From NCBI GenBank assembly GCA_007376535.1, contig VMGK01000009.1, forward strand, positions 1-46,286: a DNA stretch of 46,286 bases, written 5' to 3'. The position numbers were made by a program, and so were the translations under genes. Position 1 is the first letter of the stretch, and each line of letters begins with the position of its first letter. The notes under the pieces are model-generated. The model was not told the DNA's origin. It searched no databases and was given only the letters and a program-made list of their open reading frames with translations. The DNA is from Candidatus Berkelbacteria bacterium Licking1014_7 (GTDB lineage Bacteria > Patescibacteriota > UBA1384 > GWA2-35-9 > CG2-30-39-44). Below, in pieces: positions 6,070 to 37,502 of this stretch.

Positions 6070-7624
6070 AGTTTTGAAAAATATTTAACTGAAATTTATC
6101 AATTTTCAAAAGTTTAGAAAATGCCCAATAACTTATTAGCCAGATACCTATGGCAATCGCAAATTGTCCAAACACTTCCACAAATCTATCCAAATCAATC
6201 ACGCTGCCATAAAAAACTTTCGCGATTTGCAAAAAAATCGCTGACAAAACGCTCGCCAGCAAAATTTTTGAAAAGTTTTTTAAGAGGCGTAAGACAGATA
6301 TTTGCACTTTTTGATAAATTAAAATGATAAATAATGTTATAGCGTTAAAAAATGAACCGATGCTAATCGCCCCTGCCAAACCTAACACCCCGTAAAATCG
6401 CGCCAAAACCCAACCCAAAACCAAAACAATCAAAACAGTTGCCAAACCGACAATAGTGGGAATTTTAGTGTTTTCCCGGGCATAAAAAGCGCGCGCCAAA
6501 AGCGGCACTAAGCCGGAAAATAATAAAGACAGAGAAAATATCGCCAGAGTGTCAGCGGTTAAAATTGTCTGCTCCCAACCAAAATGTCCTGACCCCAATA
6601 TAATCCTGACAATTTGCGCCCGAAGCAAAATAAAAACCGCGGTAAGCGGTATCAAAAAATACATCACCATCAGTATCGCGTTCTCTAAAAGACAGGCAAA
6701 ACTCTTATTTTTTTTAACTGAAAAACACTCTGACAAATAGGGAAAAGCGGCTTGAGCGATTGATATTCCAAAAATTACCATTGGCATGGTCTGGATATTG
6801 TCTGACAGATTATAAATCGCCACTGATCCACCGCCCAATCCGGAAGCGATCGCGGTAAAACCAATCAGCATTATTTGCGTCGCGCCCAGCCCGACTGAGC
6901 GAGGCAACATCAATTTTAATATTTTTCTAACTGTCTGGTCTTTAATATCAATAATGATGCGATAACGCCAGCCCCTTTTAACCACTGACGGCAATTGCAC
7001 GCCCAGATGAAGCAAAGCCCCGAATACCACGCCATAAGCCGGCGCGAAGACCCCCACTCTATCCGCCAAAAACAAAGTAAAAATAATGATTGACAAATTG
7101 TAAAAAAGCGGCGCCAGCGCTGTCACCACAAAATGCTTAAAAGAATTTAATATGCCGCTAAACAGATATGAAATGGAAAAAAGCAGCGGAGAAAGTAAAA
7201 ACCAGCGGGCTAATTTTATGGTAATCTCTTGTTTTTCTAAAACGAAATCAGGCACATAAATTTTTACCAAAATCGGCATTAACAAAAAAAGCGCCGCGAT
7301 TGAAATTAAAACAAAAATTAATCCTAAATTGAAAACTTTATTCGCCACTTCAAACGCCCGTTGTTTTTTTCCAGCGGACACCAAACCAGTAAAAATCGGA
7401 ATAAAAGCGGCTGAAATCGCGCCCAAAATCAAAACATTGAAAATTAAATCCGGCAAGCGAAAACCAGCGTAATAAGTGTCAAGCAAAGTTGTCGGTATTT
7501 TCTGCGCTAAAAAATGATCGCGAATTACACCCAAAACATTGGATAAAAAAAGAGTTGCCACTAAAAATTTTGTGGCCCCGGACACTGAATTTTCACCCCG
7601 AAATTTGTTCAAAAATTTAAACAT
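6047..7624 (-). CDS. murJ: Lipid II flippase MurJ (MviN)
   Basis: Polytopic; FLVATLFLSNVLGVIRDHFLAQ, FRLPDLIFNVLILGAISAAFIPIF, LLARAFYARENTKIPT. Confidence 0.93.
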   Translation of the reverse strand: MFKFLNKFRGENSVSGATKFLVATLFLSNVLGVIRDHFLAQKIPTTLLDTYYAGFRLPDLIFNVLILGAISAAFIPIFTGLVSAGKKQRAFEVANKVFNLGLIFVLISIAALFLLMPILVKIYVPDFVLEKQEITIKLARWFLLSPLLFSISYLFSGILNSFKHFVVTALAPLFYNLSIIIFTLFLADRVGVFAPAYGVVFGALLHLGVQLPSVVKRGWRYRIIIDIKDQTVRKILKLMLPRSVGLGATQIMLIGFTAIASGLGGGSVAIYNLSDNIQTMPMVIFGISIAQAAFPYLSECFSVKKNKSFACLLENAILMVMYFLIPLTAVFILLRAQIVRIILGSGHFGWEQTILTADTLAIFSLSLLFSGLVPLLARAFYARENTKIPTIVGLATVLIVLVLGWVLARFYGVLGLAGAISIGSFFNAITLFIILIYQKVQISVLRLLKNFSKILLASVLSAIFLQIAKVFYGSVIDLDRFVEVFGQFAIAIGIWLISYWAFSKLLKIDKFQLNIFQNYENFPTK

Positions 7625-34136: not shown

Positions 34137-34358
34137 TCACATTTGAGCGAAAAATACGAAACGTGAGGAAGCATCCGCCAAGGCGGACGATGACGAATTC
34201 ACTTCAATAATACAAATATTCTTTTTTCTATCGCGCGCCAAAATATCAATTTCGCCAAAAGAAAAATGCCAATTGCGTTTCAAAATTTTATATTTGTTTT
34301 GACGCAAAAATTGACAAGCCCGATCCTCGGCTTGATTACCAATAGCGCGATTATTCAT
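34137..34358 (-). pseudogene. YraN/UPF0102-family nuclease-like protein, truncated
   Basis: NNRAIGNQAEDRACQFLRQNKYKILKRNWHFSFGEIDILARDRKKNICIIEV then unrelated NSSSSALADASSRFVFFAQM. Confidence 0.7.
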
Positions 34359-34385: not shown

Positions 34386-34688
34386 TTATTGTAAACTAAT
34401 CATTTTTACAATATCTTGGGTTAAGATGTACCCATTGCAATGTTTAAGCAAGCCCAAATACGAGGACAGGTTTTTTTTATTGACTCTTTTTAGCATCCGA
34501 TTCTTGGTTTTTGTGCGCAGTATTCGATGATGTGGCAACATAACATAGCCCAAGAAATCGATTCCTTGACCCAATTTTCGAACAATTGTTTTTCTTTCGT
34601 GCAATTTCCACTTCAGGTTATCTTTAAGAAAAATTCTACAAAGATTCCCGCCTAGATGGGTTTCTTTTGAAGTCGCTCTTGGCGACAT
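34386..34688 (-). pseudogene. C-terminal fragment of a reverse transcriptase resembling DGR/retron-group RTs
   Basis: FLKDNLKWKLHERKTIVRKLGQGIDFLGYVMLPHHRILRTKTKNRMLKRV...SSYLGLLKHCNGY; catalytic fingers/palm (YxDD) absent. Confidence 0.75.
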
Positions 34689-34732
34689 TGTTTTTAAGCA
34701 AGCGGTCTTGCCTGAAAGCCAGCCAGGAGTGT

Positions 34733-34870
34733 CTATATTTCCTTTTGCCCTATGGGCCAGCCGTAGCCGACCCTATTTTGGGCATAAAGGATATAGAGAT
34801 TTCGGCGGTTTTGATCCGTAGACCAAAACTCACTACCTACTCTCAGGATGGATATTATCATAAAATTTAA
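34733..34870 (-). pseudogene. DUF1566/C-type-lectin-like fragment (possible DGR template/variable-repeat relic)
   Basis: Minus-strand ILRVGSEFWSTDQNRRNLYILYAQNRVGYGWPIGQKEI*, immediately upstream of the RT fragment. Confidence 0.5.
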
Positions 34871-34973
34871 TTGTTGTAAAAAAAGGGCGGAACGCATCCA
34901 CGAATGAATGTATTCCGCCCCAAGAAGCGGTGAAGTTTGGCCAAAGGCCGATGGACCAAAAGGCCCAAAGATC

Positions 34974-35933
34974 CTAAAGGCCAATCTCCACAGGAACTCC
35001 CTCGACGGACGCACCGACATGGCCGAAGGCAACCCCGGGACACCAGCGCCGATAGACGCCGAGACCGTAGCCGAGACCCCAGTGGACACGGAGCGGGCCA
35101 CCGCCGTAAATTGTCGCAGTACGCGACCAGACAGAGAATCGGAACTTCCTGCCGGCGGTGATGGCAACTAGATTGCACATCAGGGCATCACGACCGGCGG
35201 TCGCGATCGGCATTCTGCGCTTGCGAGCGACTCTTTGCTGGTTGTTCCAGCTCAAGCCGGTCATCCAGCGAGGGAGCTCGTAGCCGATCACCCAGGTGGG
35301 CTCGGTGACTGCCGGCTCTTCTGCCCAAGCATAGTCCTTGCCCGAAAACCATCCGGACCACAGGATGTCCGAACGGATGGTACCGGCCACGAACTCGTCG
35401 TGCTTGACGCCCCACCAGTTGCGCTGGTTGGTGAGCGAGGTCGGCACTCCGCCAACTTCTGGCAGAGCCAACCAAAGAACTGGGATCGTTGCCCACTCTG
35501 TGGTCTGGCAAAACTTCACCAGCTCCTCCATTTGCCCTACCGTGTAGGGAACGGGAATCTGCGGGCACCAGCCCGCCTTGAGCTTCAGCGGGTTGCGGTT
35601 GCACCGATTTTGCCCCTGCATCGCCTTCTCCCACTCCTTGGGACCGATAACGATCAGTCCCTTGATGCAACGGAAGGGGCGGAGCGTGTCATCGACGGCG
35701 GTGTCCTGCTGGGCAACCACCGGATTGCCTTGGAAGGGGCGGAGCGTGTCATCGACGGCGGTGTCCTGCTGGGCAACCACCGGATTGCCTTCGATGAGCA
35801 ACTGCATTTCTCCCATCACGATGTCAAAGTCGACACCGCCGATACCGAACCTTAGACGATCGTACAGCTCTTTCTCTCTTTTGCTGTACAATCCCAACTG
35901 CTCGTCAGTAACAACCTGTCGTCCGGTCGTCAT
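34974..35933 (-). CDS. Hypothetical protein in a GC-rich segment, with internal 60-bp tandem duplication
   Basis: SD agggaggg upstream of ATG; 319 aa; GC markedly above flanking genes; own promoter-like sequence. Confidence 0.75.
   Translation of the reverse strand: MTTGRQVVTDEQLGLYSKREKELYDRLRFGIGGVDFDIVMGEMQLLIEGNPVVAQQDTAVDDTLRPFQGNPVVAQQDTAVDDTLRPFRCIKGLIVIGPKEWEKAMQGQNRCNRNPLKLKAGWCPQIPVPYTVGQMEELVKFCQTTEWATIPVLWLALPEVGGVPTSLTNQRNWWGVKHDEFVAGTIRSDILWSGWFSGKDYAWAEEPAVTEPTWVIGYELPRWMTGLSWNNQQRVARKRRMPIATAGRDALMCNLVAITAGRKFRFSVWSRTATIYGGGPLRVHWGLGYGLGVYRRWCPGVAFGHVGASVEGVPVEIGL
35672..35791. repeat. Perfect 2 x 60-bp tandem duplication (20 aa per unit)
   Basis: Units 35672-35731 and 35732-35791 are identical; encode GNPVVAQQDTAVDDTLRPF(Q/R). 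Confidence 0.95.
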
Positions 35934-36740: not shown

Positions 36741-36771
36741 CCATATACAAACCTCGTAGGTTTGTATATGG
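36741..36771. repeat. Perfect palindrome (family 2), flank of RAYT-2
   Basis: ccatatacaaacct-cgt-aggtttgtatatgg: 14-bp arms. Confidence 0.95.
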
Positions 36772-36784
36772 TAACAGGTATGGG

Positions 36785-37471
36785 CTACCCTAAATAGTTC
36801 TCTAAAATGACTTTTTTAATTTTGGCTAATTCGCGCTGACGATTGATTCTTTCTATGCAAAATTTGTAATAACCTTTTTTATCCCTATCTATTAAATGCT
36901 TAAATTTACAAATTTGTATCTTTGAATCAATACGAGTGTATTCCTTAAAAGACGAATATTCCCAATCCTGCGGATTTTTTATCAACCTGGCTGTAACCGG
37001 ATTAAGATGAATATATCTTGTTAAATGCAAAAGTTGCTCGTCGGTTTCAACCAATACAGATTTGAACCTTGATTCCCATAAGGGTCCTTTGCGTTTGTGC
37101 CTGATATTAAAATACCGCGTGTAGCTGTTTAGGGTATCGCTGATAATTTTAGATGTGCCGCCATCAACCAATTGCTGAAGTATAAAATGAATATGAGTTG
37201 GCATTAAACAATAACAAATAATCTCTACTCTTCTTGTTGCTTTTTGAGGGTCGTTATAGTTGTATATGATTTGTTTTCTAGTTCTGCTTCCACTGCGTTG
37301 CAATTCTGAAAAACTCACTTTTTTTTCTTGGCTGTTATAATACAAAAAAGAATATAGGAATCTTTCAAAATCCGCGTCACTATTAAAAATTTTATATCCG
37401 GAAATGCTTCGGCTAATAATATGAAAAATCCCTTCCGTATATAATGGTTTTTTCCTCATCATATTAATAAC
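36785..37471 (-). CDS. REP-associated tyrosine transposase (RAYT-2)
   Basis: MPTHIHFILQQL and LTRYIHLNPVTARL motifs; bracketed by palindromes. Start approximate. Confidence 0.9.
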   Translation of the reverse strand, partial: VINMMRKKPLYTEGIFHIISRSISGYKIFNSDADFERFLYSFLYYNSQEKKVSFSELQRSGSRTRKQIIYNYNDPQKATRRVEIICYCLMPTHIHFILQQLVDGGTSKIISDTLNSYTRYFNIRHKRKGPLWESRFKSVLVETDEQLLHLTRYIHLNPVTARLIKNPQDWEYSSFKEYTRIDSKIQICKFKHLIDRDKKGYYKFCIERINRQRELAKIKKVILENYLG

Positions 37472-37475
37472 CATT

Positions 37476-37502
37476 ATATACAAACCTCGTAGGTTTGTAT
37501 AT
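37476..37502. repeat. Palindrome (family 2), other flank of RAYT-2
   Basis: atatacaaacct-cgt-aggtttgtatat: 12-bp perfect arms. Confidence 0.93.

What the first reader, a model, noticed from the sequence alone, without database searches (positions are those of the whole stretch)
34386..34870. Relic of a diversity-generating retroelement-like system
Seen: a minus-strand RT C-terminus (GQGIDFLGYVMLPHHRILRTKTKNRMLKRV...SYLGLLKHCNGY) characteristic of DGR-group RTs, and immediately upstream a lectin/DUF1566-like terminal segment (EFWSTDQNRRNLYILYAQNRVGYGWPIG) rich in Asn/Gln codons, as expected for a template or variable repeat. The RT catalytic region is missing, so the system looks dead here, but the template could still be used by another RT.
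Basis: partly seen in the sequence, partly recalled or inferred. Interest (0 to 1): 0.6.

Follow-up and report, generated by a model that had tools for sequence, protein, structure and literature searches.

The report
Gutted diversity-generating retroelement with RNA leader
This is the gutted remains of a bacterial gene-diversifying machine: its target gene, promoter, structured RNA leader and the tail of its reverse transcriptase survive, but the template and the enzyme's catalytic part are gone; its relatives carry the same RNA leader, absent from the RNA family library, and what look like built-in on/off switches.

Summary
The reverse-transcriptase (RT) fragment is real. 34386-34688(-) is the thumb of a DGR-clade RT; its best full-length relative (66%) lies in a locus with a 13/13 adenine-specific template/variable-repeat (TR/VR) pair. 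The 'lectin/DUF1566' segment is misread: it is a non-coding RNA leader (34726-34846, minus) with a sigma-70-like promoter and two UACG-loop hairpins (fold z = -6.2). In 30 relatives hairpin 1 is 93% paired and 8 of 9 pairs covary. It normally sits between VR and TR of Patescibacteria DGRs and matches no Rfam family. The real VR is the adenine-poor 3' end of the gene upstream (34974-35933). About 1.3 kb, holding TR, avd and two thirds of the RT, is missing, and no TR fitting this VR exists in the genome, so the cassette is dead. A separate intact DGR lies on contig C22 (20 of 21 TR/VR mismatches at adenines). Among 103 relatives' DGR loci, 63 carry a simple-sequence tract at the divergent avd/RT start and 19 inside the RT gene, never both, with reading frames split about as thirds; 0 of 9 phage DGR loci have one. 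These DGRs look phase-variable, without read-level or laboratory evidence yet.

The parts
34974..35933 (-). DGR target gene, 319 aa; 45-46% identical to target proteins of G006 and G086
34996..35110 (-). VR-like, adenine-depleted 3' end of the target gene (7% A against 22% in the rest); aligns with the TR and VR of G086 and G006
34880..34922 (-). terminator-like GC-rich inverted repeat plus T-run after the target gene
   Evidence: read from the sequence; part of it in the scan
34852..34880 (-). sigma-70-like promoter TTTACA-17-TAATAT with TG before the -10
   Evidence: a -10-like box recurs at this place in relatives
   Evidence: R1 match 34796-34846, 69 bits, E 4e-16
34808..34829 (-). hairpin 1 of the leader: 9 bp with UACG loop, covarying
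34736..34795 (-). hairpin 2 of the leader: long stem with UACG loop; predicted fold, covariation not tested
34632..34726 (-). zone of the deletion junction; about 1.3 kb (TR, avd, RT residues 1 to about 265) missing relative to intact loci
34386..34688 (-). RT thumb fragment, 100-codon ORF (homologous part 34401-34631)

Best explanation
34386-35933 (minus) is an internally deleted DGR cassette in a Patescibacteria-type genome. In intact relatives the order is: target gene with 3' VR, promoter, structured leader, TR, avd (on the opposite strand), RT. The leader begins a few nucleotides after a -10-like box and lies 125-214 nt before the TR on the same strand, so it is most likely the 5' part of the TR-containing template RNA. 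In the window a deletion of about 1.3 kb removed TR, avd and the fingers and palm of the RT and joined the leader to the RT thumb. The target keeps its last VR sequence, now frozen. Shown: anatomy, homology, covariation, absence of the TR. Inferred: that the leader is transcribed together with the TR and helps to form or protect the template RNP, and that the cassette was once active.
For: RT thumb among DGR RTs; leader covaries, folds at z -6.2, and 44 of 51 examined model matches lie 624-806 nt upstream of the RT on its strand; adenine-poor VR aligned with the TR and VR of G086 and G006; no compatible TR in the genome; the intact C22 cassette has the same leader and an adenine-specific TR/VR pair; G029 shows a comparable leader-to-RT deletion.
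Against: No RNA data. The junction was not checked in reads, so a mis-assembly across a hypervariable locus is possible. The exact breakpoints cannot be fixed without a sister strain. A DNA role of the hairpins (as for the BPP-1 target hairpin) is not excluded.
Confidence: 0.86

Rival explanations
1. One reading: 34733-34870 is the end of a lectin/DUF1566 gene, that is a TR or VR, next to a dead RT.
For: One open frame with Asn and Gln codons; a TR does lie upstream of the RT in intact DGRs.
Against: No protein family hit; no partner repeat in the genome; conserved as RNA structure between VR and TR in relatives that have a separate TR.
Confidence: 0.02
2. The hairpins act as DNA, like the BPP-1 hairpin/cruciform downstream of VR that marks the target for retrohoming, and not as an RNA leader.
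For: They lie 70-231 nt downstream of the VR where target and RT are neighbours; the stem covaries while loop and flanks are conserved; a stem of 7-10 bp with a 4-nt loop fits PMC3240598.
Against: The BPP-1-type hairpins lie 4-34 bp from the VR with GRNA loops, here UACG at 70-231 nt; a promoter-like box directly precedes the element; it stays near the TR and RT even where the VR is far away or inverted (L089, L091, L094).
Confidence: 0.15
3. The deletion is an assembly artefact and the genome really holds a second intact cassette here.
For: Metagenome-derived genome in 41 contigs; DGR loci are hypervariable; a perfect 60-bp tandem duplication sits in the target gene.
Against: No stray TR, avd or RT N-terminus of this cassette on any contig; another genome has a comparable deletion.
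Confidence: 0.1
4. Leader plus RT thumb is a retained functional unit (a small RNA and a small protein).
For: Promoter-like box and leader intact; thumb ORF open for 100 codons; G029 keeps a similar pair.
Against: Breakpoints differ (thumb only here, from the PIGNLTSQ motif in G029); no clear ribosome-binding site before the ATG at 34688.
Confidence: 0.05

Closest known systems
DGRs of Patescibacteria/CPR (DGR clade 2 of Roux et al. 2021, PMC8144416)
   Same: RT, bAvd, adenine-specific TR/VR and target genes are present in the intact relatives and on contig C22.
   Different: The window copy lacks TR, avd and the RT core. The leader, the antisense avd and the simple-sequence tracts were not found described in the papers searched; assignment to clade 2 itself was not tested.
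BPP-1 DGR and its target hairpin/cruciform (Guo et al. 2011, PMC3240598)
   Same: Mutagenic retroelement; a hairpin of 7-10 bp with a 4-nt loop downstream of the VR.
   Different: UACG loop instead of GRNA, 70-231 nt instead of 4-34 bp from the VR, preceded by a promoter-like box, avd in opposite orientation.
Rfam RT-15 RNA, annotated between avd and RT of phage Cruim01
   Same: A structured RNA next to a DGR RT.
   Different: No Rfam family matches the present leader, even at E up to 10; position and sequence differ.
Slipped-strand phase-variable genes of Neisseria, Haemophilus and Campylobacter (for the relatives' tracts)
   Same: Poly-C, poly-G and dinucleotide tracts inside or at the start of coding frames; about one third of the frames in register.
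   Different: Here the switched genes would make a targeted mutator; switching itself was not shown.

Membership tests
DGR (window cassette) | RT of the DGR clade with catalytic YxDD and [IVL]GxxxSQ motifs | tested here: not met
   Only the thumb is left; its nearest relatives are DGR RTs with TR/VR pairs, so descent is supported but function is not.
DGR (window cassette) | Target gene with a VR | tested here: met
   Adenine-depleted 34996-35110, aligned with the VR and TR of G086 and G006.
DGR (window cassette) | TR that differs from the VR at adenines | tested here: not met
   No TR in the window or the genome.
DGR (window cassette) | Accessory gene avd | tested here: not met
   The only Avd of the genome is on C22.
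DGR (contig C22, own genome) | RT, Avd, TR, VR, adenine-specific mismatches | tested here: met
   20 of 21 mismatches at TR adenines; GMPLGNLTSQ and YADD present.
Known Rfam RNA family (leader) | Match to a covariance model of Rfam 15 | tested here: not met
Group II intron RT | Better match to group II RTs than to DGR RTs | tested here: not met
   TIGR04416 17 bits, E 0.002 against PHROG 1423 43 bits, E 4e-11; nearest relatives lie in DGR loci.
Phase-variable (contingency) locus, relatives only | Repeat tract whose length changes within a population and shifts a reading frame | tested here: inconclusive
   Tracts and out-of-frame genes shown across species; variation within one population could not be tested.

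The most novel reading that the evidence does not exclude
Patescibacteria DGRs are switchable mutators: a hypermutable simple-sequence tract placed either at the shared divergent avd/RT start or in the middle of the RT gene (never both) turns targeted hypermutation on and off by slippage, and a new covarying leader RNA with UACG hairpins carries the template. The window cassette is one such element gone permanently off by deletion. The window itself shows the leader and the deletion, not a tract.
Probability: 0.7. Interest if true: 0.82.

Novelty: new variant of a known kind. Interest (0 to 1): 0.55.

Why it matters
A decayed DGR is ordinary in itself. But it exposes a conserved RNA leader that is absent from Rfam, which gives a handle on the template RNA of Patescibacteria DGRs and on cassettes without an RT. 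Its relatives suggest that a targeted mutator is itself under slippage control, which would help explain how cells limit DGR activity and can be tested from existing metagenome reads.

Tried and rejected
(1) 34733-34870 as TR or VR: no partner repeat in the genome, no protein family. (2) The C22 TR acting on the window VR in trans: the sequences do not align beyond chance. (3) A lost TR elsewhere: adenine-tolerant pattern search with 3 mismatches, negative. (4) RT pieces moved to other contigs: negative. (5) The leader as a known Rfam RNA: negative. (6) The leader as the Guo-type target hairpin: loop and distance differ, though a DNA role is not excluded. (7) Viral relatives of the RT fragment: none found. 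(8) My first reading of the 5' tracts as lying in the RT start was corrected: avd runs antisense there and the tract usually sits just inside avd. (9) A tree of RT C-termini places the fragment among the DGR RTs but resolves it poorly and has no outgroup, so placement rests on the nearest relatives, not on the tree.

Full report
WHAT IS THERE. The window is contig C8 of an 806-kb genome in 41 contigs whose relatives are Patescibacteria-type MAGs. On the minus strand at 34386-34688 lies an ORF of 100 codons that matches PHROG 1423 'Reverse transcriptase' (E 4e-11). Only weak hits link it to group II introns or DRT systems. A full-length RT from relative G038 aligns with the fragment only over residues 266-342, the thumb, at 66% identity, and the only other RT in the genome is the intact one on contig C22. 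So the RT observation is correct, and the catalytic domain is missing.

THE 'LECTIN' SEGMENT IS A NON-CODING LEADER. The segment 34733-34870 is open in one frame but matches no protein family. Its core, CTGAGAGTAGGTAGTGAGTTTTGGTCTACGGATCAAAACCGCCGAAATC, recurs as DNA in relatives' DGR loci. A pattern search gave eleven distinct copies with a 9-bp stem closed by UACG or CACG and conserved flanks. In that seed alignment 95% of cells pair, 8 of 9 pairs change on both sides, and the covariation score is 0.93 against 0.33 shuffled and at most 0.20 when slid. The window's leader (112 nt folded) gives z = -6.2 and two hairpins, both with UACG loops. A covariance model found 53 matches with E up to 1 in 100 sources; of the 51 examined, 44 lie 624-806 nt upstream of the RT on its strand, and the distance from leader to TR start is 125-214 nt. 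With 30 sequences the covariation stays (90 double-changed cells against 26 shuffled; that alignment is fitted to the model, the seed was not). Most strong copies have a -10-like box a few nucleotides upstream of the first base; in the window the promoter-like site is TTTACA-17-TAATAT. Rfam has no match.

THE REAL TARGET. Upstream lies a 319-aa gene (34974-35933), 45-46% identical to proteins of G006 and G086, each followed by a TR. The aligned tail of the window gene (34996-35110) has 7% adenine against 22% in the rest, and by eye the codons that carry adenines in the G006 and G086 TRs are those substituted here. This is a VR. Its TR is gone: a search of the whole genome in which every VR base may be A in the partner, with three mismatches allowed, returns only the VR itself.

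THE DELETION. In intact loci the leader ends about 620-810 nt before the detected RT start, and the thumb follows about 770 nt further on. In the window the distance from leader end (34796) to thumb (34631) is 165 nt. So about 1.3 kb is missing: TR, avd and RT residues 1 to about 265. G029 (L049) shows a comparable junction at another breakpoint: its leader runs into the RT at the PIGNLTSQ motif.

OWN-GENOME CONTROL. Contig C22 holds a complete DGR: RT 6439-5336(-), Avd 6323-6724(+), TR 6723-6855(-), VR 7182-7317(-), with 20 of 21 mismatches at TR adenines. Its RT is closest in the PDB to 8ub7 (E 7e-43), which I recall as the BPP-1 DGR RT. It carries the same leader (6986-7037, E 1e-5). Its TR does not fit the window VR.

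WHAT THE RELATIVES SHOW. To place the RT I collected 80 loci from genome contigs and 20 from whole genomes. In all 101 of 107 loci where Avd was detected it is antisense to the RT, between TR and RT. Of 103 non-redundant loci, 63 have a simple-sequence tract at the divergent avd/RT start, 19 have one inside the RT gene (mostly (GA)n, and mostly just before the PIGNLTSQ motif), and none has both; if independent, about 12 would. Tract density is 83 per 127.5 kb in and next to the RT against 13 per 1052 kb in the flanks. For the avd tracts the nearest live ATG is in frame, +1 or +2 in 14, 23 and 23 loci; for the mid-RT tracts 6 loci are in frame and 13 are not. Ten of those 13 still have adenine-specific TR/VR pairs (for example L136 21/21 and L058 13/13), which argues for recent activity and reversible switching rather than old pseudogenes. 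Nine phage DGR loci have no such tract. The open papers searched describe no such tracts in DGRs. Limits: no read-level variation was tested; consensus contigs can carry homopolymer errors (less likely for dinucleotide tracts); subscription papers were not searchable; avd start codons are assigned by position only.

VERDICT. A real DGR relic, but with a different anatomy from the one proposed. The relic itself is ordinary. The leader RNA and the apparent phase switch of its relatives are the interesting part, and the second is not visible in the window itself.

Noticed in passing
L021-L143, avd and RT genes (for example L136 around 6610, L059 5871-5908, L081): Simple-sequence tracts in avd or RT of Patescibacteria DGRs, mutually exclusive in site, frames split about as thirds: apparent phase variation of the mutator.
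   Followed up: partly
L045 (G006:C85): Cassette with target, leader and an adenine-type TR but no RT or avd on the contig; the genome has RTs on other contigs, so it may be served in trans.
   Followed up: partly
L049 (G029), L052 (G004), L112: N-terminally truncated RTs that all begin at the PIGNLTSQ motif, the place where other loci carry the (GA)n tract.
   Followed up: partly
window 34137-34358 (-): UPF0102 (YraN-like) gene next to the relic looks truncated: 73 aa, with only profile positions 1-45 of 80 matched.
   Followed up: no
window 36743-37500: IS200-like (Y1_Tnp) transposase gene 36785-37483 flanked by 25-bp palindromic repeats ATATACAAACCTCGTAGGTTTGTAT.
   Followed up: no
window 35672-35791: Perfect in-frame 60-bp tandem duplication inside the target gene; recent, or an assembly effect.
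   Followed up: no
L134 13133-13727, L096 3841-5627: A second DGR-type TR/VR pair on the opposite strand of the same locus; in L134 leader-model matches lie between its TR and VR.
   Followed up: no
L002 4196-4353 (own genome, contig C22): 64-nt near-perfect tandem repeat (two full copies and part of a third) beside the C22 DGR.
   Followed up: no
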